53,402 nt of DNA, from the IMG/VR virus record IMGVR_UViG_3300046472_000072, positions 1 through 53,402 of that record. One strand, written 5' to 3'. Positions 6,911 through 52,953 of the stretch are shown in pieces. A program made the position numbers and the translations under genes. The notes below the pieces were generated by a model. The model was not told where the DNA came from and made no database searches. It was given only the letters and a program-made list of their open reading frames with translations. The DNA is from a virus. Positions within the stretch are counted from its first letter, which is position 1. The number at the start of each line of letters is the position of its first letter.

Positions 6911-7606
6911 ATGAAACAAGTAATTGCAAGGATTTCGCCAATCACCAATACTCCGGTAATCTTCGATGTTGATTCGCGCAAGACTGGAGATGGACGCCTG
7001 AAAGCCTACCTCGATGGGAAGGATGTCCTCGTAGGGTATGACTTTTACATGAACACCGAGCACCTTCCGCAAGATCAGGCACTGAAAATCGCACGAGCTT
7101 ACGCCCAACATGCGGGCATCCCCGAGCATGAAATTATGGTTCGCCAGAGGTTCCCGAAGACTACCACTGGCAAGCGCAAGACCCATGACGCTGCGCTGAA
7201 GCTGGTTGAGAAAACTGATGAGAAGGTTGCAGACAAGCCTGAGACGCTTCAGCAACTTGCACAGGAAGTCCACGACCAGCATACGAAAGAGAAGGCTCAG
7301 AAGGAGTCCAAGAAGGCTGAGCCGAAGAAGGAAGTTAAGGTAGAGAACAAAGCAACCTCCGCCAACCCCGAAGGTGCAAAGGTTGAGCAACCGAAGCGCA
7401 GGCAGTATAACCGTAAGAACACGAAACGTTCTGAGGCAGCAATGTCTCGCTATTTGAAAGAACTTGGAAAAAATTCAGCAGTGTCGGAGACGTTGCTTGA
7501 GGCGGCTGCACCTGGACCCGGTGTGACCCCTGCTCAAGTGGATGAGGCAAAACTGAAGCTCGGCATGGCGATTGCTGAAATTTTGATGAAGTTTAATGTT
7601 CTGTGA
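6911..7606 (+). CDS. Lysine/glutamate-rich hypothetical protein, 231 aa
   Basis: A 231-residue protein with a folded-looking N-terminus (MKQVIARISPITNTPVIFDV, about 1-90), a long charged, probably coiled or disordered middle (about 90-160, many KKAE/KKE repeats), a basic stretch (QPKRRQYNRKNTKR) and a helical C-terminus. The basic tract suggests nucleic-acid contact, but no family is recognised. AAGGAG precedes the ATG. A hairpin terminator follows, and the next gene converges on it. Confidence 0.75.
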   Translation: MKQVIARISPITNTPVIFDVDSRKTGDGRLKAYLDGKDVLVGYDFYMNTEHLPQDQALKIARAYAQHAGIPEHEIMVRQRFPKTTTGKRKTHDAALKLVEKTDEKVADKPETLQQLAQEVHDQHTKEKAQKESKKAEPKKEVKVENKATSANPEGAKVEQPKRRQYNRKNTKRSEAAMSRYLKELGKNSAVSETLLEAAAPGPGVTPAQVDEAKLKLGMAIAEILMKFNVL

Positions 7607-8684
7607 GATGGTGAGCCTCTCTGTTTGGAGAGGCTTCCTCTGCGCTGAGCAGGGTATATCCATTCACTTCCTTCATGGCACCTCTGGCGAACCGGTAAAC
7701 CTGTGTTTTGGTGCAGTTTAGTATGGCAGCAATGTCCTCGGCTGATCCCCTAACAACATCCCCAGTGGGGATGTTGTGTAAGGTGTAAAATCCGTTCTTT
7801 AGAGGCTTCTTGCGTTCCTTTTTCAGTCTAGGATCGTCCTCAAGAGTTGAATTAAGGCAGAAATCTCCGCATTTTACCATCTTACCTTTCAGCACGGCGA
7901 AAACACTACCCGCTGGTAGGCTGTATTCCTCGATCAATTGTCTACTCGTCTTGTGCAGGACTTCCCCTGTAGAAATTCTTCTAAACTCTCTGAGTATGGC
8001 GGGCCTATGATTCCAATCGTCTGTACTGGCCATGCAGTAACCTTGTGTAAACTTCACCTCTCCATCTACAATTCTGTTTACATAAGTAATAGGTATGTCT
8101 GCAAATACGCTAAATTCCTTCCTAGTCATCTGGTAAGTCTCGCCAGAGACGATATGCTTAAACATATGCAGAGTGCTGTCTAGTACATTAGGGACCGCCA
8201 TGTTTGATACTGCCATACAAACGCCTTTAGATGTTGTTATTTGCCCCAAAACCAGCCTCGCCACGTCGTTCCTAGTAAGGCCAAATTTTTTCTTGGCGTC
8301 ATCTCTGGTTCCGACCAAAACTTCGCCTGTTCGTAAATCTCTGAACTCATACTTCTTGAAGTCCTTCCTTTTCGCAAGAAACCTGCGAACCGCTTCTTCC
8401 TTAACCCTTGCATACATCTTTCTATTCTTAACTACTGTCCTTCCATCTCTTGGAATGAGCATTGCTTTGGCTGCGTACCACAGCTCGTCAGTGTCGTATG
8501 CCTTAGCTAACAACAAGTGCGCCATAAAGTGGTCTTCCACAGTAAGGTAAACCAAGTTCTCTGGCTCATCCCCTCCTCCCATGCATCTTGCAACGATATG
8601 GTGCCTCTCATAGTACACACCTTCCAGCTTCGGCATCATCTTCCTGTGCTCAATCAACTCATTGTAGATGCGCAGGTAATCCAT
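7593..8684 (-). CDS. HNH homing endonuclease with C-terminal NUMOD-type repeats
   Basis: A 363-residue protein. The HNH nuclease domain is near residues 25-60 (YYERHHIVARCMGGG, then ENLVYL and the helical HFMAHLLLAKAY). Four repeats of about 55-70 residues follow, each with a (S/T)GE or (S/T)GD turn and a small helix-turn-helix; these are NUMOD-type DNA-binding modules typical of phage homing endonucleases. It lies antisense to the surrounding early genes and is the second gene of a cassette whose first gene stops in a TGATG overlap with this start. A homologous cassette lies at 18.2-19.4 kb. Confidence 0.85.
   Translation of the reverse strand: MDYLRIYNELIEHRKMMPKLEGVYYERHHIVARCMGGGDEPENLVYLTVEDHFMAHLLLAKAYDTDELWYAAKAMLIPRDGRTVVKNRKMYARVKEEAVRRFLAKRKDFKKYEFRDLRTGEVLVGTRDDAKKKFGLTRNDVARLVLGQITTSKGVCMAVSNMAVPNVLDSTLHMFKHIVSGETYQMTRKEFSVFADIPITYVNRIVDGEVKFTQGYCMASTDDWNHRPAILREFRRISTGEVLHKTSRQLIEEYSLPAGSVFAVLKGKMVKCGDFCLNSTLEDDPRLKKERKKPLKNGFYTLHNIPTGDVVRGSAEDIAAILNCTKTQVYRFARGAMKEVNGYTLLSAEEASPNREAHHLTEH
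7614..7635 (+). terminator. Hairpin terminator, rightward
   Basis: AGCCTCTC-TGTTTG-GAGAGGCT is an eight-pair stem with a weak T-rich tail, just after the stop at 7606. It lies inside the 3' end of the convergent HNH gene. Confidence 0.5.
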
Positions 8685-18221: not shown

Positions 18222-19136
18222 TCAGTTTTTCCTTATTTCTTTCTTAGTTCCGGTGATCGTCTCGCCTTCAGCATTAATTAGGCGGATTGGCTTGAACTTC
18301 TCTGCCAAAACTCTCTCGTAATTTTCTGGTAGACAATACCCGAACGATGTCAGTGACTTTCCATTAGTTATATGTGAAACTGAGCTATTGTGCATTCCTG
18401 TCAACCTCATCAACTCTGGACGAGTGCCAGTTATGACTGCACCTGATTCTATGTGAACTAGCGTAAACTCATCCACGGCTTTTGTTTTCTTGGTAGGGTC
18501 AGTTCCTTCTAAATAGTATTTGCCAGCGACAAGTTTTATTCTACGTGTCAATGAGTAAATACTAGCCTCTGAGATTCCTAATTTCTCGCTCAACTCTTTA
18601 GCAGTGCCTGTATGGGTCAGGCCATCTTCAAGACTAACTATGTTGTACTTCTTGTGTTTACCGGCATTTTCTGCGTTTCCCGCCAAGCAAATACCCCTAG
18701 CAGACGCTGAGATACCTCTGACTAATTTACTCGTCTGGGAAAAATCCAACCCGTATTCCTTTTGTAGATATTCCCTTGTGGCCGTAAACACCTTACCCGT
18801 CCTCAAGTCTTCAAACTCATACTCTGTTTGGTCGGACACATAAATTGCTAGATTTCTTCTTGCGACAGCAAACATATGTCTATTCCTTATAACTCGCCCG
18901 TTTTGCGGCATCTGCATTGCAATAATGGCTCTCCACATAGGCCCGCCGTACGTCTTTGCCAGGAGGAGATGTGCGAAGTAGTGTTCTTCGTATGTTAAGT
19001 ATATAAGGTTCTCGTCGTCATCGCGTCCACCAAGACTCACAGGGTGTATGTGGTGACGTTCGTAATACTCGGAGTTCAGTTTAGGGCGGAATTTGCGACT
19101 TTCTATGAAGTCGTCATAAATCTTGTTGTAGTTCAT
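18222..19136 (-). CDS. HNH homing endonuclease with NUMOD-type repeats (cassette 2)
   Basis: A 304-residue relative of the protein at 7593-8684. The HNH domain is near residues 23-60 (YYERHHIHPVSLGGRDDDEN), followed by three full NUMOD-type repeats. A fourth begins (RLINAEGETITGTKKEIRKN) but is cut by a stop. In the -1 frame the missing part continues at once as LNVSSGFFKQPIVGKGSNNE and ends at 18157, so the fourth repeat is split by one base at an AAAAA run. Its ATG overlaps the stop of the MSRxFDY gene (ATGA). Confidence 0.85.
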   Translation of the reverse strand: MNYNKIYDDFIESRKFRPKLNSEYYERHHIHPVSLGGRDDDENLIYLTYEEHYFAHLLLAKTYGGPMWRAIIAMQMPQNGRVIRNRHMFAVARRNLAIYVSDQTEYEFEDLRTGKVFTATREYLQKEYGLDFSQTSKLVRGISASARGICLAGNAENAGKHKKYNIVSLEDGLTHTGTAKELSEKLGISEASIYSLTRRIKLVAGKYYLEGTDPTKKTKAVDEFTLVHIESGAVITGTRPELMRLTGMHNSSVSHITNGKSLTSFGYCLPENYERVLAEKFKPIRLINAEGETITGTKKEIRKN

Positions 19137-26833: not shown

Positions 26834-26842
26834 GACGAGCCC

Positions 26843-26860
26843 GCCCGGCTCGAGCCGGGC
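26843..26860 (+). terminator. Strong GC palindrome, probable terminator
   Basis: GCCCGGCTCGAGCCGGGC is an 18-base perfect palindrome just after a stop codon. It has no clear T-run. Confidence 0.5.
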
Positions 26861-26888
26861 TCTATAGAGCAGGAGTACGGAGGGAATT

Positions 26889-26975
26889 ATGAGTAGACTT
26901 ACTGCGACAGTGTGTTATTATGCAACTTGGCTATCGCTGGCAGTGTTTGCAGTCTTGGATCACATGAGGCATTGA
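26889..26975 (+). CDS. Tiny membrane protein, 28 aa
   Basis: A 28-residue hydrophobic peptide (MSRLTATVCYYATWLSLAVF...) with GGAGGGAATT before the ATG. Plausible single-helix membrane peptide; its short length limits certainty. Confidence 0.4.
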   Translation: MSRLTATVCYYATWLSLAVFAVLDHMRH

Positions 26976-27730
26976 GCCTAAACTGTTCTACACATGGACG
27001 CTACGGCGTCCTTTTGCTATTGTGCGAATGCTTTCTGTGTGGCTGTGTGGCGTGCTATCAGATTGCTTTGCATGCGAAGTACTTATGATTGGCTATTGTG
27101 GAACACTGTTCCGTTTAATCGAAACTCGTTCAAGAGTGAGAATCACTCGCCCCTTGGCATCAACGAGGCATCATAGCCGTATCCTATCAAGCTGATAGCG
27201 CAATGCTATCGTGTAAAGCTTCCTTTACATCACACTAGCAAGCATGGCGAAAGGTGCATCCGTCGCAGCAGGAGCACGCCAGGACAGGCCCAAGCCACGC
27301 CAGAGGGCAGCTTGTGGCAGGACATGGGCAGGGATGGCTATCGAGGCAGCGTGAGAGGCGTTACAGGGGCTGGCAGGGGCGTGCTGGCAGGGAGACGGCA
27401 CAGAGGCGTGAGAGGGGATTGTGTGGGGGCGTAGCTGGTGAGGAGTAGCTGTCAAGAGGACAGCGGTGCGCCGCATGGGATGGTGCTGGAGTAGGCTATT
27501 GGGTGCCCGATTGAGCCATCTATACGCCCATTTAGGTCTGTAGATGGCCCCGGTAGGCGATACTTTGGGTAGGATGGAGGCGCATCTAGCCCTCCTGCCG
27601 GGCCTGTTAATCCATGATCCTGCCACTGCAAGGAAACTGGACCTTACCTTCCAGATATTCTGCACCTTGCTTCGAAAGCAACTCCTCGCAGAGGGTCACT
27701 CGCCAAAAATTTTATATCGAAAAACGCGAA
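26976..27730. other. Gene-less stretch R3 with a tandem hairpin array
   Basis: About 750 bases without a convincing gene. Between 27134 and 27227 lie GAGTG-AGAAT-CACTC, the 16-base repeat shared with R1 (27154-27169), CTATCA-AGC-TGATAG, an overlapping GATAGC-GCAAT-GCTATC, and GTAAAG-CTTC-CTTTAC. Two of these share GATAG and so exclude each other, like an attenuator. The rest (27240-27600) is G-rich on the plus strand with repeated GGCAGG-type words. Confidence 0.4.
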
Positions 27731-27761
27731 AAGGGAGGAATGCCCGAAAGCACCCTCCCTT
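27731..27761 (-). terminator. Rho-independent terminator of the resolvase unit
   Basis: On the minus strand AAGGGAGG pairs with CCTCCCTT (eight pairs, inner TGC/GCA), followed by T-rich sequence (TTTTCGCGTTTTTCG). It lies 70 bases beyond the resolvase stop. Confidence 0.7.
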
Positions 27762-27832
27762 ACGAAGATATTTGCTGAGATATTTCTTTTAAAACAACAT
27801 ACTACATCTGTTTCTTAAAGTAAATTTTCAGA

Positions 27833-28498
27833 TCAATTCCAGCGAGAAATCACACGACAGATACTTGCTGCACTCCAATCACCGCCTCGCGCAGTAGGAA
27901 CTCCTAGCGCGTTCATTTCTTCAGCAATCTCAGCATAGGTCATTCCACAATTCTTCATACGCTCGATGGGTGGGCGGACATGCGCAGCAAACCTGTCAGC
28001 CTTGGCTTTCACCATAACAGCAGCTTTCTCGCGAGCCTCTGGCAAGTTGGTACGGTTGCCCAGGATGACACCTCGCGCCTTAGCTGCTGCCAACCCTGCT
28101 TTGGTACGCAGGCCAATCATCTTGCGCTCTTTCTCGGCAAGCCCAGCAAAAATTGTACCAACGAACTCGTCGTGCTCGGCCCCGAGGTCGATGGCAATAA
28201 CTTGCTTCTTCTTCTGTATATACTCACGCGAGATATCGAAGTCCCTGCTGAACCTATCGCTCTTAGTCACCACCACCTGAGCCTTCATCTTTTTGGCCAT
28301 AGCAAGGGCCATCGACATTACGGGACGGTCTTTCATCGGCGTGCTGCCAGAGATCACCTCATCCATGATTGTGACGAGGTTATATCCGTGATGCAGTGCC
28401 CAGCGTTCGATCTCTGCCCGTTGACTGTCCAAACCGTTTTTCGTGATGGACTGCGAGCGGGTTGAGACCCTGCAAACCCCAATGAAAGTTTTAGTCAT
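27833..28498 (-). CDS. Serine recombinase (resolvase/invertase family)
   Basis: A 221-residue small serine recombinase. The catalytic serine is in GVCRVSTRSQS (residue 12), with the VTKSDRFSRD arginine motif near 80 and GLAEKERKMIGLRTKAGL leading into the long helix. The C-terminus (GMTYAEIAEEMNALGVPTAR, GG.W) is the helix-turn-helix DNA-binding part. Such enzymes invert or resolve DNA between short sites, or move small elements. It is too short for a large serine integrase. AAGGAG precedes the ATG. The next gene upstream shares its C-terminal half. Confidence 0.85.
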   Translation of the reverse strand: MTKTFIGVCRVSTRSQSITKNGLDSQRAEIERWALHHGYNLVTIMDEVISGSTPMKDRPVMSMALAMAKKMKAQVVVTKSDRFSRDFDISREYIQKKKQVIAIDLGAEHDEFVGTIFAGLAEKERKMIGLRTKAGLAAAKARGVILGNRTNLPEAREKAAVMVKAKADRFAAHVRPPIERMKNCGMTYAEIAEEMNALGVPTARGGDWSAASICRVISRWN

Positions 28499-28559
28499 TA
28501 TTCTTCTCCTTGTATATACCGTTTAGATTCCACAATGATAGACAAAGAAAATGAGCACG

Positions 28560-29015
28560 TCAAGCAGATTCTTTAGAGAGTACTGCCTTGGCCCGAACCC
28601 ATACGTTACTCACTGATTTGCTGTACCACTTTCCACCGCGAGCTGTTGCAATATTCTGGCTGTTGAGGTATTCTGCTATTGTGTCGAGAGGCATGCCCTG
28701 CTCTTTCATAGGCAAAATAATTTCGTAAATCTTCAAAGCAAACTCGTTTGCGCGTGCGGTCTGAGACTCCCGACCAAGCCTCCTGGCTTCTTCTGCGTTG
28801 GTGTGATTACCTAGTTTAACTCCACGCTCCTTCGCACGCCTCAGCCCTTCCCTCGTAAGCTCAGCATGGTTATCCCTCCGCTTCCATCCGGCGTCATGCA
28901 CTCGTTCGTGACAAGACCCACAAAGTGGGACAGTCTTAGTACCTCCTAAGCTCTGAGGGATTACATGGTGATCTTCAGTCGCTGGTGCCGCACATTCAAA
29001 ACATTCTTTTAACAT
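28560..29015 (-). CDS. HNH nuclease fused to a resolvase-type DNA-binding domain
   Basis: A 151-residue chimera. Residues 1-45 are an HNH domain (CFECAAPATEDHHVIPQSLG, then LCGSCHERVH, with paired cysteines for zinc). From about 53 to the end it aligns with the C-terminal half of the neighbouring serine resolvase: GL..AK.RGV.LGN.TN..EAR, then MK..GM....IAE..N......ATARGG.W...S. A nuclease domain thus replaces the recombinase catalytic domain on the same DNA-binding platform. Probably a homing or site-directed nuclease. CTGGAGAACT precedes the ATG. Confidence 0.85.
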   Translation of the reverse strand: MLKECFECAAPATEDHHVIPQSLGGTKTVPLCGSCHERVHDAGWKRRDNHAELTREGLRRAKERGVKLGNHTNAEEARRLGRESQTARANEFALKIYEIILPMKEQGMPLDTIAEYLNSQNIATARGGKWYSKSVSNVWVRAKAVLSKESA

Positions 29016-29057
29016 AGTTCTCCAGTGATATAATTCTTAAAAGTATGGTTTACCATA

Positions 29058-29068
29058 TAAGAATCTTA
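29058..29068. promoter_or_regulatory. Perfect TAAGAWTCTTA palindrome over a -10 box
   Basis: TAAGAATCTTA overlaps the -10 box of the leftward promoter of the HNH-resolvase chimera, so a bound protein would block it. Confidence 0.55.
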
Positions 29069-29091
29069 CCACGAGAGTTGCTATTTGTCAA
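29063..29091 (-). promoter_or_regulatory. Sigma70-like promoter of the resolvase unit
   Basis: On the minus strand TTGACA, 17 bases, TAAGAT, about 50 bases before the chimera gene. Confidence 0.7.
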
Positions 29092-36399: not shown

Positions 36400-36715
36400 G
36401 TTCTGGTTGTAGCACTACTGTCGAGGTCATGAAAGCCGACGAGGGCTGACACAAATTCTCGTAACAAATTTGCCCAACAGGACAAGCTCCATCTGGGCAT
36501 ACTCCGCTTCGGCGGATTCGAGGAGAGGGCGTCTGTATGGGCGCTGAAGAGGGTCGGGAAGGAAGGTGCTGCGACTCCACCAATTATTTATAGGCTGCAC
36601 GGCAGGGATGCTGTGTGGCTTTTTGTTGTTTCAAGTTTTGTGGCGAACGGATTAGCTATCCTCTCCAGTGCTACACCACTGGATAGTCACTCTTATTAAC
36701 TCGTGTAGGAGCATT
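36400..36715. other. Intergenic stretch before the GIY-YIG gene
   Basis: About 315 bases with no gene seen. It has a TCCGC-TTCG-GCGGA hairpin (36503-36516) and a CCAGTG-N6-CACTGG hairpin near the end. No clear promoter. Confidence 0.35.
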
Positions 36716-37864
36716 ATGAGCGGAAGATTTAAGAAAGGTCAAGGGTTTATTGACTTGACCGGAGAGCGTTACGGCATGTTGACGGTACTTGAGTTTGTTG
36801 GGCAAGACAAGCACAAACGGAGTAAATGGAGATGCCAATGCGACTGTGGCGCTATCACAGAAGAATTCGGAGCTGAGATGAAACACGGAAGTGTTAAGTC
36901 TTGTGGATGTGCAATGACGTGGAAGCGACCGCGAAGGGTTGATCTTGTAGAATTTCTAAGTCGCGCCAAAGAAAAACATGGTGAAAGGTACGACTATTCC
37001 TCTGTGGAGTATAAGAATACTAGCACACATGTGAATATTAGGTGCCACGATCACGGAATTTTTGCACAGACTCCTACTCAACACTATCGCGGTGGGCAAG
37101 GGTGCCCGAAATGTGCTTACGAAGAAAAAGCAAGAGCCAAGCGCAGTAACACCGAAACTTTTGTTCAAGAGGCCAAGAAAAGAAATGGTGGTAATTTTGA
37201 TTACTCTCTTGTTCATTACAGTGATAGTCAAACTCCAGTTGAGGTCATCTGCAAGACCTGTAATACCAACTTTAAACAACGCCCCAGCGTCCATTTACTT
37301 GGTAGTGGTTGCCCAGCATGCGCGAATGCGGACAAAAAGGAACGGTATACGCTCAGCACTGAAGAGTATGTAGAAAAAGCTAAAACTATTTTTCAAGATA
37401 GTGAGTATTGTTATAAGGGCACCGTTTATACGTATTCTAAGGATAAGATTGAGGTCTTTTGCAACTGCTGCAAGTCTACCTTCAAGATTAGGGCAGATGT
37501 CCACTTACGCGGCCACGGGTGCCCTTGTAAAACAACTCATGGATTTGATTTTACCCGTCCTGGGACGCTCTACATCTTAGAGTGTGGACCTATTACTAAG
37601 ATTGGAATTACATCACATGAAGTGAGCCGAAGAATCAAGGACATCTCAAGGTCTTACGGCGTAAATTTTAACCTTGTGACGGAGTTTGAGGTAGAAGACC
37701 CTAGACTCTGCTCAGATGTGGAAACAGAGATGTTACGGTATCTTAGGAGTTGTTATAAACAGCCGAACGACAAATTCGATGGTTATACGGAGTGCTTCTA
37801 CGATGTTGACCAACGTGACCTTATCAACAGGTTGAAAATTAAGCTGGAGGTATATGACCAGTAA
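36716..37864 (+). CDS. DUF723/GIY-YIG homing endonuclease 1, adjacent to the terL intron
   Basis: A 382-residue protein. Residues 1-65 form a zinc module (GERYGMLTVLEFVGQ, CQCDCGAI, SCGC). Three DUF723-type repeats follow, each with a YDYS-type stretch, a V.I.C..HG or V.CK.C segment and a terminal GCPxC. The C-terminus (TLYILECGPITKIGITS ... LRSCYKQPNDKFDGYTECFY) is a GIY-YIG-like MUG113/T5orf172 nuclease. Its last 11 bases overlap exon 1 of terL and carry the terL ribosome site. It probably cuts intron-less terL and so spreads the neighbouring intron; inferred from position. Confidence 0.85.
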   Translation: MSGRFKKGQGFIDLTGERYGMLTVLEFVGQDKHKRSKWRCQCDCGAITEEFGAEMKHGSVKSCGCAMTWKRPRRVDLVEFLSRAKEKHGERYDYSSVEYKNTSTHVNIRCHDHGIFAQTPTQHYRGGQGCPKCAYEEKARAKRSNTETFVQEAKKRNGGNFDYSLVHYSDSQTPVEVICKTCNTNFKQRPSVHLLGSGCPACANADKKERYTLSTEEYVEKAKTIFQDSEYCYKGTVYTYSKDKIEVFCNCCKSTFKIRADVHLRGHGCPCKTTHGFDFTRPGTLYILECGPITKIGITSHEVSRRIKDISRSYGVNFNLVTEFEVEDPRLCSDVETEMLRYLRSCYKQPNDKFDGYTECFYDVDQRDLINRLKIKLEVYDQ

Positions 37865-39608
37865 GAAAAAAGTTTATGGCCCTGCAAGTGAGAAGCAGCG
37901 CCTTATTCTAACAGATCGAACTACAGACGTAATTTTGATCGGCGGTGGTAGGTAATCCAGTGCCTCCGCTTTACCAACAAACCCTTAATTCGGTGGAACT
38001 CTCAATGAGACAATACCGAGCGAAGCCTAGAAATAGGAACGTGTAACGACTAGCCGTAAGGCGTAGGCCCGAGTGGGCCGAAACAGGGTTCAGCCGCTCA
38101 GCGGTGGAAGATATAGTCTGCTCCTTACAGTGATGTAAGGCTGCTTAATAAGCGGGATAAGATTAACGACCTTATCCGAACACTACCTCATGGCTGGTGG
38201 GGGTAAATCAGCAACATGTTTGATCAAAAACCTTGACGGGGTTAATGACCCGCACTTCAGATGCACAATTTTCCGTCGCACATACCCTGAGCTTAAGCGT
38301 CAAGGTGGACTAATTGACGAAAGCAAATCTATCTATTCGTCTTGGTCTGGGGAATACAAATCTCAAGCCATGGTATGGAATTTTAAGTCTGGAGCATCTA
38401 TTGCTTTCTCAGCGATCGCCTCCGATGATGACTTAGGCTCCTGGCAAGGTTCCCAACTTACCCGCGTGCTGATCGACGAAGCTGGTGACAAGTGGACAGA
38501 GAAGCAGGTTTTGTTTCTTCTGTCACGTATCCGCTCTGCGCATAGCAAGATTTACCCGCAGATGATACTTTCATGCAACCCGGATATTAATTCGTTCTTG
38601 AAAAAATGGGTCGATTTCAGTCTTGGACCTGACGGTGTTCCTCTGCCGGGAACAGAGCACAGAATTCGTTGGTTTGTCACTGTAGAAAACCAAGTGTTGT
38701 GGGCGGACTCTGCTGAAGAGTGCTACGAACTCCACGGCAAGCCGCGCAATATGGTTTATGCACGAGGAATGTCCGAGGAAGAGATTAAGAAGCATTCGCC
38801 TGATAAACTCTTTATGCCGAAGAGCTTCCGCTTTATCCCAACCGGAGTATTCGACAATCCGTACCTGTTGCCGCCGAGAAACAACACGTATTTGGCGAAC
38901 CTGTTGTCTCAGCCATATGTGAATCAGTTAAGATTTTTGCATGGTTCCTGGACAGCTCGCGAAGCTGGAGAATCCTTCTTCCGCAGGGATTGGGTAGAGA
39001 TTGTTGATAAGCCACCTGTCAAGGTAACGGGACGTGTAAGAGCGTATGACTTTGCTGCATCCGAGGAGCCTAGCCACGGAGGTTCCTCAAGGGACCCCGA
39101 TTACACGGTTGGTTGCCTCATGAGCCGTGACAGCTCTGGGACTTTATTCATTGAGCATATCAGGCGGTATAGAAAACTCACGGATGGCGTCTTAAAGGAC
39201 GTTATCGAGACAGGGTACAATGATGGTGTAGAAGTGCCTGTACTGATTCCGAAAGATCCAGGTGCAGGTGGTGCAGCAGCTCACCTCTTCTTTGTTCAGC
39301 ACCTATCCGAAGCAGGACTTTCCGTAAAGACCGTGAAGGTAAGTGGACACTCTGGCAAACTCCAACGGGCACAGCCATTTTTTGCAATGGCAGAGGCAGG
39401 CAAGGTCAAGATCGTCAGGGATTCTGAAGGTGACAGGTTCGTAGAGAATATGCTGATGGAATTGGAGTATTTCACAGGTGGTCGGAATGAGAAGAATGAT
39501 CAGGTCGATGCTATCGCCGATGCTGCCAATTTCCTTATGAGGCAACAGGTGATGCCGAATTTCACACTAGCCATAAACACCCAACCCTCACCAATCCCCT
39601 CCCTATAA
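37854..39608 (+). CDS. terL: Terminase large subunit, interrupted by a group I intron
   Basis: Two exons, 37854-37949 and 38193-39608, join in frame to a 503-residue TerL. Exon 1 (MTSKKKVYGPASEKQRLILT ... DVILIGGG) has GGAGGTAT before its ATG. Splicing creates Walker A GGGAGGGKS across the junction. Walker B is RVLIDEAGD, and the C-terminal nuclease domain has YDFAASEE and KNDQVDAIADAANFL. TerL is the ATP-driven motor and nuclease that packages DNA into proheads. The ATG at 38190 is the accidental last three bases of the intron, not a start. Confidence 0.9.
37950..38192 (+). ncRNA. Group I intron (243 nt, no internal ORF)
   Basis: Exon 1 ends in T at 37949, and its last bases GCGGTGGT pair with the internal guide GCCTCCGC at 37962-37969, leaving the conserved U-G pair at the 5' splice site. 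The P7 strands GACTA (38048-38052) and TAGTC (38114-38118, within the hallmark AGATATAGTC) are present. The intron ends in G at 38192, and CCAG at 37957-37960 can pair with CTGG of exon 2 (P10). Removing it restores the terL P-loop. It should self-splice; its short length explains the lack of an internal endonuclease. Confidence 0.9.
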
Positions 39609-42992: not shown

Positions 42993-44045
42993 ATGAGCAT
43001 GACTATTCGCGATTATTTTAACTCCTTCAAGAATTCCGATTTCGTTGACTCGATTTCGCAAGTTCCGCTGCAATATGGCTACATCAATAGCCAGAATCTG
43101 TTTACGGTCAAATCGACCAACCAGACCGCTATCGTTTTCGACAAAGACTACGCTAACGTCACTCTGCTGCCGCAGGTGAATCGCGGTGCTAAGGCTTCGA
43201 CCGAAAACCACGAGCGTAAAGCTGATACCTTTGCTCTGAAGCTGGCTTATTTCAAGCACGAAGACCGCATCACCAACGAAGACATCCAAGGCTGGCGCGT
43301 TCCTGGCTCGACCGACTCGGAGACCTACGGTCGTGCTACTGCCGAGAAGATGACTGATATGCGTCGTGCTTGGGACCAGACTCAGGAATACATGAAGCTG
43401 CAAGCCCTGAAAGGTGTTTTCAAGACTCCTGACGGCGCTGTTGTTGCTGACATGTTTGGCGAGTTCGGCATCACCCAACAGACCATCGATTTCACCCTTG
43501 GCACCAACACCACTAACGTTGATTCGGTCATTCGTCAACTGAAGAAGGCTGTCGCTACCAACGTGATGAACGGTGGGGCAATCTCTGGTATTCAAGTTCT
43601 GGTCGATCCGCTGTTCTACGACAAACTGATCTCGCATCCGAACGTTAAGAATGCATACCAGTTCTATATGGCACAAGGCAATGGTAACGCTGTCCTGCGT
43701 GACGATAACACCTCGTATATGCAATGGGGTATCATGGACGCCTTCCAACTGCGCGGCGTGAAGTTCGTGTCCTATGACGCAACGTTCAACCTGCCGGGCG
43801 GCACCACTGAGCAAGCCTTCGCTGATAACAGCGGTATCGCTTTTGCAGAAGGTGTGCGCGATTTGTTCCGTGGTTATGCAGGTCCCTCGGCAAAACTCAG
43901 CGAAGCAAATGCTCCCGGCCAAGAAATCTTCGTGCGCCAATATTTGGACCCGAAGGACGAGTATGTAGAGTTTGAGATGGAGGCATCGCCCCTTTATTTT
44001 CCAACGAGGCCAGCGTCGATCATCAAACTGACTTCGAGTAACTAA
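42993..44045 (+). CDS. Major capsid protein
   Basis: A 350-residue HK97-fold capsid protein of the lambda gpE type. Supporting features are its length, position after decoration, the MTIRDYFNSFKNSDFVDSI start, the E-loop-like acidic/basic segment (VNRGAKASTENHERKADTF) and the C-terminal FEMEASPLYFPTRPASIIKL. AAGGAAAACTCAA precedes the ATG at 42993; 42999 is an alternative. The stop codon lies in a TAAGATTCTTA element. Confidence 0.9.
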   Translation: MSMTIRDYFNSFKNSDFVDSISQVPLQYGYINSQNLFTVKSTNQTAIVFDKDYANVTLLPQVNRGAKASTENHERKADTFALKLAYFKHEDRITNEDIQGWRVPGSTDSETYGRATAEKMTDMRRAWDQTQEYMKLQALKGVFKTPDGAVVADMFGEFGITQQTIDFTLGTNTTNVDSVIRQLKKAVATNVMNGGAISGIQVLVDPLFYDKLISHPNVKNAYQFYMAQGNGNAVLRDDNTSYMQWGIMDAFQLRGVKFVSYDATFNLPGGTTEQAFADNSGIAFAEGVRDLFRGYAGPSAKLSEANAPGQEIFVRQYLDPKDEYVEFEMEASPLYFPTRPASIIKLTSSN

Positions 44046-51783: not shown

Positions 51784-52953
51784 ATGCCAGCAAAACTATC
51801 GCAAGAAGAATACCTCAAACGTTGTGTTGAAAAGCATGGAAATAAGTATGGACTGCAACACATAGAGTACGCCCGAACATCTTCCAAGGTCAAGGTAGAG
51901 TGTTATGAACATGGTATTTTCCACGTACACGCAGGAACGTTTATGCGCGGTACAGGGTGTGCCAAATGCGCCTACGAGTACAACGGATTGAAACACAGAG
52001 TTACGCAGGAAGATTTTATAACGCGCAGCAGAGAGATTCACGGCGAAGCTTACGACTACAAGACCGTTGTCTACACTAAATCAGATGTAAAAGTAAAGAT
52101 TTGGTGTAATGCTTGTGCCAATGAGTTCGAGATGACCCCTGAAGCGCATCTCGTGGGGCAGGGTTGTCGAACATGCGGATACAAACGGAATGGTCTTGCC
52201 AAGAGGGCAGACTTCGCAAAGTTTGTAGAGGAATCTCGGTTTCATCACGGCGACAAGTTCAGCTACGAGCATGTTGAAGGCGTTTGGACAGGCATCCACA
52301 CCAAATTCGACCTTTACTGTCACGTGCATCAAGAGTGTTTTGTGGCATACGCTTCTACGCATGCTAAAGGTGCTGGCTGTCCCAAGTGCGCAAAGATCGC
52401 AGGTGGGATCAAGAATAGAAGTGATACTGAGACTTTCATCCAGCAAGGAAAGAAAAAGTTTGGGGACGCTTTCGATTATACCAAGGCAGACTACGTTAAG
52501 AATAACAAGAAGGTTACGCTCCGCTGCACGGAGCATGACAAGTGGTTCAACGTCACGCCAAACGTCCACTTGCACCCAGATAACACCCACGGAGGTTGCC
52601 CACAGTGCGTACAGGCTGGATATAAAATAGCGAAGCCTGGTTATCTGTACGTTCTACATGTCGATGAACTGACTAAGGTAGGAATCACAAACAGACAACC
52701 GGAAGTCCGTTGCAAGTCTGTTGCCAGAGAATCGAGTAAGAGTTTTGAAGTTCTCAAGGCATACTATTTCAATAATGGCATGCTCCCTAGAGAGATTGAG
52801 ACAACATTGTTGAGGGAGCTAAGAGCGCAGTACAAGCAGCCTCTGGAACGTTTTGATGGCTCTAAAGAAACCTTCTACAACGTCAACCTCGCATCCCTCC
52901 TAAACCGCATCGAAGAATTAATAGCAACACAAACAGCGGCACTAGCCGCGTAA
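51784..52953 (+). CDS. DUF723/GIY-YIG homing endonuclease 3
   Basis: A 389-residue member of the same family as the proteins at 36716 and 44140. Four DUF723-type repeats end in GCAKCA, GCRTCG, GCPKCA and GCPQC. The GIY-YIG-like domain (YLYVLHVDELTKVGITN ... LRAQYKQPLERFDGSKETFY) is at the C-terminus. It is inserted between the tail tube and tail-assembly chaperone genes. Start at 51784 with AAGAAAGAG upstream. Confidence 0.85.
   Translation: MPAKLSQEEYLKRCVEKHGNKYGLQHIEYARTSSKVKVECYEHGIFHVHAGTFMRGTGCAKCAYEYNGLKHRVTQEDFITRSREIHGEAYDYKTVVYTKSDVKVKIWCNACANEFEMTPEAHLVGQGCRTCGYKRNGLAKRADFAKFVEESRFHHGDKFSYEHVEGVWTGIHTKFDLYCHVHQECFVAYASTHAKGAGCPKCAKIAGGIKNRSDTETFIQQGKKKFGDAFDYTKADYVKNNKKVTLRCTEHDKWFNVTPNVHLHPDNTHGGCPQCVQAGYKIAKPGYLYVLHVDELTKVGITNRQPEVRCKSVARESSKSFEVLKAYYFNNGMLPREIETTLLRELRAQYKQPLERFDGSKETFYNVNLASLLNRIEELIATQTAALAA

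What the first reader, a model, noticed from the sequence alone, without database searches (positions are those of the whole stretch)
28560..29015. HNH nuclease grafted on a resolvase DNA-binding domain, next to the parent-like resolvase
The C-terminal 95 residues align throughout with the adjacent serine recombinase, including the GNxTN and TARGG.W landmarks, while the N-terminus is HNH. The nuclease may therefore target the same site that the resolvase uses, giving a cut-and-recombine pair or a competing element.
Basis: partly seen in the sequence, partly recalled or inferred. Interest (0 to 1): 0.7.

Follow-up and report, generated by a model that had tools for sequence, protein, structure and literature searches.

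The report
Phage nuclease wearing a recombinase's DNA-binding tail
A family of environmental phages carries a small DNA-cutting enzyme whose aiming part is related to that of the DNA-rearranging enzyme encoded next door; the two genes appear to travel between phages together, most likely as a selfish 'homing' gene that spreads with its neighbour.

Summary
Window 28560-29015(-) encodes a 151-aa protein: an HNH nuclease head joined to the end of helix E, linker and DNA-binding domain of a serine recombinase. The tail matches the adjacent intact resolvase (43% over 88 aa, E 3e-17) and Pfam Recombinase above its cut-off.
I found eight more such fusions in viral contigs. All nine lie next to a full resolvase, in two arrangements and with two resolvase types. 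No relative with the same tail turned up in named phages, plasmids or the bacterial genomes searched.
Identical resolvase tails sit beside fusion tails only 57% alike, so a shared target site is doubtful.
Best reading: a free-standing homing-type endonuclease. Evidence: the same slot holds unrelated HNH genes in relatives; an 'empty' allele exists; the nuclease-resolvase cassette is the best-matching DNA between otherwise different contigs in four pairs; cassette type disagrees with overall relatedness; head and tail have shuffled; and the same HNH head occurs with another HTH tail in T4-like phages.
Cleavage, target and homing are untested. New variant of a known kind.

The parts
28560..29015 (-). 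HNH-recombinase-tail fusion protein, 151 aa
   Evidence: ORF and translation; eight homologues
28896..29003 (-). HNH (bba-metal) head, residues 5-40; central Asn of classical HNH replaced by invariant Thr28
   Evidence: Pfam HNH_5/HNH just below cut-off; invariant columns; predicted strands 14-18, 27-31 and helix 33-41
28581..28865 (-). Recombinase-type tail, residues 51-145: end of helix E, linker, PF07508-like DNA-binding domain
   Evidence: BLASTP 43%/88 aa to the neighbour; PF07508 above cut-off; model aligns to the Bxb1 recombinase domain, 47 residues, rmsd 1.4, Z 4.8
27833..28498 (-). Serine resolvase/invertase, 221 aa, catalytic RVS and DRxSR motifs present
   Evidence: PF00239 E 1.5e-22; alignment A4
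28499..28559 (-). 61-bp gap between the two genes; TAAACG at 28520-28525 (-), 27 bp upstream of the resolvase start
29016..29085 (-). Upstream region of the fusion gene; TAAACG lies 36-41 bp from the start in 4 of 5 co-directional loci (TAAACC in the window)
27514..27541 (.). Candidate resolvase crossover site: 28-bp imperfect inverted repeat with CC/GG centre, single copy, about 290 bp downstream of the resolvase
   Evidence: Found in six type-A contigs near the resolvase, one copy each, in either orientation
27225..27700 (.). C-rich non-coding region between convergent gene blocks, holding the candidate site
   Evidence: Sequence and comparison with relatives

Best explanation
The gene is a free-standing HNH endonuclease of the homing type whose specificity module is a serine-recombinase DNA-binding domain. 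It sits in a slot beside the resolvase gene that different homing-type nucleases occupy in related phages. In a mixed infection it would bind a recombinase-type site at or near the resolvase locus of a phage lacking it and cut there. Recombinational repair would then copy the nuclease gene together with the adjacent resolvase and its site region. Shown: the domain make-up, the constant neighbour, slot polymorphism, exchange of the cassette between phages, and head/tail shuffling. Inferred: nuclease activity, the target site, cutting of empty alleles, and copying by repair.
For: (1) Slot polymorphism next to the resolvase: HNH-recombinase-tail gene (window, L001-L003, L008 upstream; L004, L009-L011 convergent), unrelated HNH_5 genes (L016 upstream, L023 convergent), a 299-aa AP2/HNH-like gene (L017), a degenerate second recombinase (L012), nothing (L014, L015). 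(2) The cassette is the best-scoring DNA match between contigs for window-G003, window-G407, G002-G407 and G005-G406, out of 8 to 65 matches; L010/L011 are 94-99% identical over the fusion gene and resolvase, with much lower identity in the flanks. (3) Cassette type and relatedness disagree: G003 (type A) aligns over 33% of length with G406 (type B), while the window (A) and G407 (A) share 5%. (4) Conflicting halves: window head nearest L002 (8% different; bootstrap 98%), window tail nearest L001/L008 (27-28%; 99.5%). (5) Same HNH head plus an HTH (PF13384; PF02796 resolvase HTH below cut-off) in L116/L119, between prohead protease and scaffold/major capsid genes of T4-like phages, with no resolvase nearby. 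(6) The window has four other homing-type genes. (7) Literature: such genes cluster at essential phage genes, swap DNA-binding domains, and convert flanking DNA (PMC10448857, PMC2988022).
Against: No cleavage, target or homing data. Nine of nine recombinase-tail fusions sit beside a resolvase, which could mean a kept joint function rather than a hitch-hiker. These phages are mosaic everywhere, and other shared blocks at about 90% exist, so cassette exchange alone does not prove nuclease-driven transfer. The central HNH Asn is Thr here, and the HNH Pfam scores are just below cut-off, so activity is not certain.
Confidence: 0.6

Rival explanations
1. Functional partner of the resolvase: the nuclease binds the resolvase's own site (crossover site or operator) and nicks, cuts or blocks it, regulating or helping recombination, much as the HK97 HNH protein works with terminase.
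For: Adjacent to a full resolvase in 9 of 9 loci and with two resolvase types. TAAACG occurs 21-27 bp upstream of the resolvase in 5/5 and 36-41 bp upstream of the fusion gene in 4/5 type-A loci, about 0.02-0.03 expected per 70 bp; it also occurs in some of the 28-bp sites. Both halves are under purifying selection.
Against: Fusion absent from relatives with the same resolvase family (L012, L014-L017). Identical resolvase tails (L002, L008) pair with fusion tails 57% identical. The fusion tail has a higher amino-acid-changing rate than its head. The motif was chosen after looking, and the loci share ancestry.
Confidence: 0.22
2. Exclusion nuclease: it cuts the resolvase/res region of co-infecting phages to remove their markers and is kept for that benefit; homing is incidental.
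For: Same genetics as homing; marker exclusion by phage homing nucleases is established (PMC2988022).
Against: Cannot be told apart from homing on sequence alone; nothing specific points to it.
Confidence: 0.1
3. DNA-binding regulator or inert relic: an HNH that lost activity and now acts through its tail, for example as a repressor of the resolvase promoter.
For: Central Asn replaced by invariant Thr; HNH scores just below Pfam cut-off.
Against: The HNH half is the most conserved part: its metal- and zinc-type Cys/His residues are invariant in all nine, with amino-acid-changing differences as low as 0.016 against 0.50 synonymous.
Confidence: 0.08

Closest known systems
Free-standing HNH homing endonucleases of phages (T4 Mob class; IPA-HNH with AP2 domain, PMC10448857)
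   Same: Small modular nuclease plus DNA-binding domain, own ORF between phage genes, present or absent at one locus, associated with exchange of flanking DNA
   Different: DNA-binding part is a PF07508-type serine-recombinase domain; the recurrent neighbour is a resolvase rather than a polymerase, terminase or reductase gene
Serine resolvases/invertases (PF00239 with PF07508-like tail), e.g. the neighbour P0002
   Same: Helix E end, linker with GNxTN, TARGG.W DNA-binding domain
   Different: No catalytic resolvase domain or nucleophilic serine; HNH head instead
HK97-type HNH protein beside terminase and cos (discussed in PMC10448857)
   Same: HNH gene constantly next to a DNA-processing gene, could be homing-derived
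   Different: Partner here is a resolvase; the tail is a recombinase domain
HNH-Orf/YdfU (DUF968) proteins of lambdoid phages (PMC4118853)
   Same: Similar short HNH head (weak matches to phage HNH/YdfU proteins); HNH joined to a recombination-related domain
   Different: Orf is a recombination mediator; DUF968 match here is far below cut-off
IS607-type elements: serine recombinase TnpA with nuclease TnpB (own knowledge)
   Same: Serine recombinase and nuclease genes side by side, moving together
   Different: TnpB is RNA-guided RuvC; here a 151-aa HNH protein with no RuvC part; transposon ends were not systematically sought

Membership tests
Free-standing phage HNH homing endonuclease | HNH catalytic domain | tested here: met
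   HNH Cys/His residues invariant in nine sequences, bba fold predicted; Pfam HNH/HNH_5 E 1e-4 to 5e-4, just below curated cut-offs in the window protein, HNH above cut-off in L004; central Asn is Thr
Free-standing phage HNH homing endonuclease | Separate DNA-binding module | tested here: met
   PF07508 above cut-off in window, L004, L009, L010
Free-standing phage HNH homing endonuclease | Presence/absence and replacement by other nucleases at one locus among relatives | tested here: met
   L012, L014-L017, L023 against the nine fusion loci
Free-standing phage HNH homing endonuclease | Transfer together with flanking DNA | tested here: inconclusive
   Pattern present, but general phage mosaicism can also produce it
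Free-standing phage HNH homing endonuclease | Cuts the endonuclease-less allele and is copied into it | not testable with these tools
   Needs biochemistry and mixed infection
Serine recombinase (PF00239) | Resolvase catalytic domain with nucleophilic serine | tested here: not met
   No PF00239 match in the 151-aa protein
PF07508 Recombinase domain | Profile score above curated cut-off | tested here: met
   23.4 against 21.1 bits, residues 96-138; Bxb1 recombinase domain alignment Z 4.4-4.8, supportive only
HNH-Orf/YdfU (DUF968) | DUF968 profile above cut-off | tested here: not met
   14.2 against 27.8 bits
HK97-type terminase-associated HNH | Gene next to terminase/cos | tested here: not met
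   Terminase at 38190-39608, about 9 kb away
Known anti-phage defence nuclease | Significant PADLOC profile match | tested here: not met
   Only mREase_IV at E 0.012 over the HNH part

The most novel reading that the evidence does not exclude
The nuclease and the resolvase are one two-enzyme mobile unit. Both recognise TAAACG-type sites around the resolvase; the nuclease destroys the recombination-site region of phages lacking the unit, and repair installs nuclease, resolvase and site together. A nuclease would thus have turned a recombinase's own address code into a gene-drive target.
Probability: 0.2. Interest if true: 0.8.

Novelty: new variant of a known kind. Interest (0 to 1): 0.5.

Why it matters
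Homing nucleases are known to be modular and to swap DNA-binding parts, but I found no description of one carrying a serine-recombinase DNA-binding domain. It suggests a simple way for a nuclease to gain a target: take the aiming part of a recombinase. It also gives natural HNH heads with alternative tails (PF07508-like or HTH) for testing how specificity moves, and points to a resolvase locus as a nuclease hot spot.

Tried and rejected
Rejected: recent duplication of the neighbouring resolvase as source of the tail. Rejected: frameshifted or split gene or assembly artefact (nine intact loci from several samples). Searched without finding an HNH-plus-same-tail protein: INPHARED phages and PLSDB plasmids (hits are resolvase tails or HNH-like heads only), a genome contigs pattern scan (one resolvase), 398 genomes of one phylum (resolvase-type tails only). 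PDB sequence search gave little: the top rows are designed helical repeats matched by helix composition, then weak HNH matches. Foldseek on PDB found no match at E <= 0.001; the best viral match, A0A516KVC1 (238 aa, E 4e-5), has no name and was not followed. The resolvase model is poor (pLDDT 67) and was not used. Literature searches found no prior description, but only open-access full text was searched. The corresponding convergent gap of Pseudomonas phage vB_PsaM_M1 is followed by a 213-aa gene that does not look like a resolvase.

Full report
What is there. The ORF at 28560-29015(-) encodes 151 residues. Residues 5-40 form an HNH pattern (C5xxC8, HH16-17, C32xxC35-H36, H40). Residues 54-141 align without a gap to the C-terminus of the neighbouring resolvase at 27833-28498(-), 43% identity over 88 residues, E 3e-17. 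Pfam Recombinase (PF07508) scores above its cut-off; HNH_5 and HNH score at 1e-4 to 5e-4, just under theirs. The neighbour is an intact serine recombinase: PF00239 at 1.5e-22, with RVS and DRxSR motifs conserved. A model of the fusion shows two strands and a helix in the head and three long helices in the tail; the tail aligns to the recombinase domain of the large serine recombinase Bxb1 (47 residues, rmsd 1.4, Z 4.8), which supports but does not prove the fold.

Where it occurs. IMG/VR holds eight further fusions. The HNH head is nearly constant; the tail varies. All nine lie next to a full-length resolvase. In the window, L001, L002, L003 and L008 the fusion lies directly upstream of a 'type A' resolvase on the same strand. 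In L004, L009, L010 and L011 it converges on a different 'type B' resolvase, with overlapping 3' ends in L009-L011. No HNH-plus-same-tail relative was found in INPHARED phages, PLSDB plasmids, a pattern scan of GTDB genomes, or 398 genomes of one phylum; hits there were recombinase tails or HNH-like heads alone.

The neighbour is not the parent. In a tree of tails, the fusion tails fall on one side of a branch supported 96/93, apart from all 17 resolvases. The window tail is 41% identical to its own neighbour and 46% to resolvases of L014 and L016. L002 and L008 have identical resolvase tails and 89-95% identical resolvase DNA, yet fusion tails only 57% identical and fusion genes 62-69% identical in DNA. 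So the fusion is an old lineage that moves independently of the resolvase in at least this case, and a shared binding site cannot be assumed.

The slot is a nuclease hot spot. In relatives the place beside the resolvase holds other genes: a 399-aa HNH_5 protein upstream (L016), a 351-aa HNH_5 protein convergent (L023), a 299-aa protein that by eye resembles AP2/HNH homing nucleases though it has no Pfam hit (L017), or a second serine recombinase lacking the second catalytic Arg of DRxxR (L012). L014 and L015 have nothing there. In L014 a gene of the GELPLSYGRY type, which lies upstream of the fusion in the window, L001, L002 and L003, is followed directly by the resolvase: an 'empty' allele. 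The window itself has four other homing-type genes.

The cassette moves between phages. L010 and L011 are about 93-99% identical over the fusion gene and resolvase; identity falls to 13-56% in much of the upstream flank and to 33-40% beyond the downstream end. On the contigs as fetched, the fusion-resolvase cassette is the single best DNA match for window-G003, window-G407, G002-G407 and G005-G406, among 21, 8, 40 and 65 matches. Cassette type disagrees with overall relatedness: G003 (type A) aligns over 33% with G406 (type B) and G407 (A) over 30% with G005 (B), while the window (A) and G407 (A) share 5%. These phages are mosaic in general, so this supports, but does not prove, nuclease-driven exchange.

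Head and tail shuffle. The window head differs from L002 by 8% and from L001/L008 by 19-21%; the window tail differs from L001/L008 by 27-28% and from L002 by 42%. Column bootstraps support these opposite affinities at 98% and 99.5%. Both halves have far fewer amino-acid-changing than synonymous differences, and the tail changes faster than the head in every pair, usually two- to seven-fold. The same HNH head occurs in L116 and L119 with a different helix-turn-helix tail (PF13384; resolvase HTH PF02796 below cut-off in L116), between the prohead protease and scaffold/major capsid genes of T4-like phages, where no resolvase is nearby. That is a usual kind of place for free-standing homing nucleases (own knowledge; PMC10448857).

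Mechanism. Published work shows that phage homing endonucleases cluster at essential genes, mix DNA-binding domains, convert flanking DNA and cause marker exclusion (PMC10448857, PMC2988022). The best reading is a homing-type endonuclease that uses a recombinase-type domain to aim at or near the resolvase locus of phages lacking it. Activity, target and copying are inferred. One observation keeps the shared-site idea alive: TAAACG lies 21-27 bp before the resolvase start in 5 of 5 type-A loci and 36-41 bp before the fusion start in 4 of 5, where 0.02-0.03 is expected per 70 bp. The motif was picked after looking, and the loci are related.

Likely resolvase site. A 28-bp imperfect inverted repeat with a CC/GG centre lies about 290 bp downstream of the resolvase (27514-27541), in a C-rich non-coding region between convergent gene blocks. 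It occurs once in each of six type-A contigs, in either orientation relative to the resolvase. Single copy argues against simple inversion within the sequence held, but the contigs may be incomplete. In type-B loci a CTCCAAAGGCTATAC element in the resolvase promoter recurs inverted 220-270 bp away. These sites are candidates only.

Verdict. Real and conserved; a new variant of modular phage homing nucleases rather than a new kind of system.

Noticed in passing
window 27514-27541; L001 7445, L002 7456, L008 7443, L003 7491, L012 5937: Single-copy 28-bp imperfect inverted repeat near type-A resolvases, flipped in the window and L012 relative to L001/L002/L008; candidate crossover site.
   Followed up: partly
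L010 7196-7210, 7430-7444, 7481-7494; also L011, L009: Type-B resolvase promoter element CTCCAAAGGCTATAC recurs inverted 220-270 bp away in the C-rich region.
   Followed up: partly
L012 4302-4922: A second, divergent serine recombinase (PF00239 E 4.5e-11) lacking the second Arg of DRxxR sits in the slot used by the HNH fusion; possible inactive recombinase.
   Followed up: no
L116 1032-1409; L119 3989-4357: Same HNH head fused to a helix-turn-helix tail between prohead protease and scaffold/major capsid genes of T4-like phages.
   Followed up: partly
window 7593-8684, 18222-19136, 36668-37864, 51784-52953: Further homing-type genes: two HNH-like (the first by eye only, no Pfam hit) and two MUG113 (GIY-YIG-related) with DUF4379; the third lies just upstream of the terminase.
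   Followed up: partly
window 42993-44045: Major capsid protein is 64% identical to Pseudomonas phage vB_PsaM_M1 (OP714164.2, 89 kb, listed under Ounavirinae), the nearest named relative seen; the gene at its corresponding convergent gap does not look like a resolvase.
   Followed up: partly
window 26834-27832: Roughly 1-kb C-rich non-coding region between convergent gene blocks, with a terminator-like hairpin just after the resolvase; a similar region is found in related phages; role unknown.
   Followed up: no
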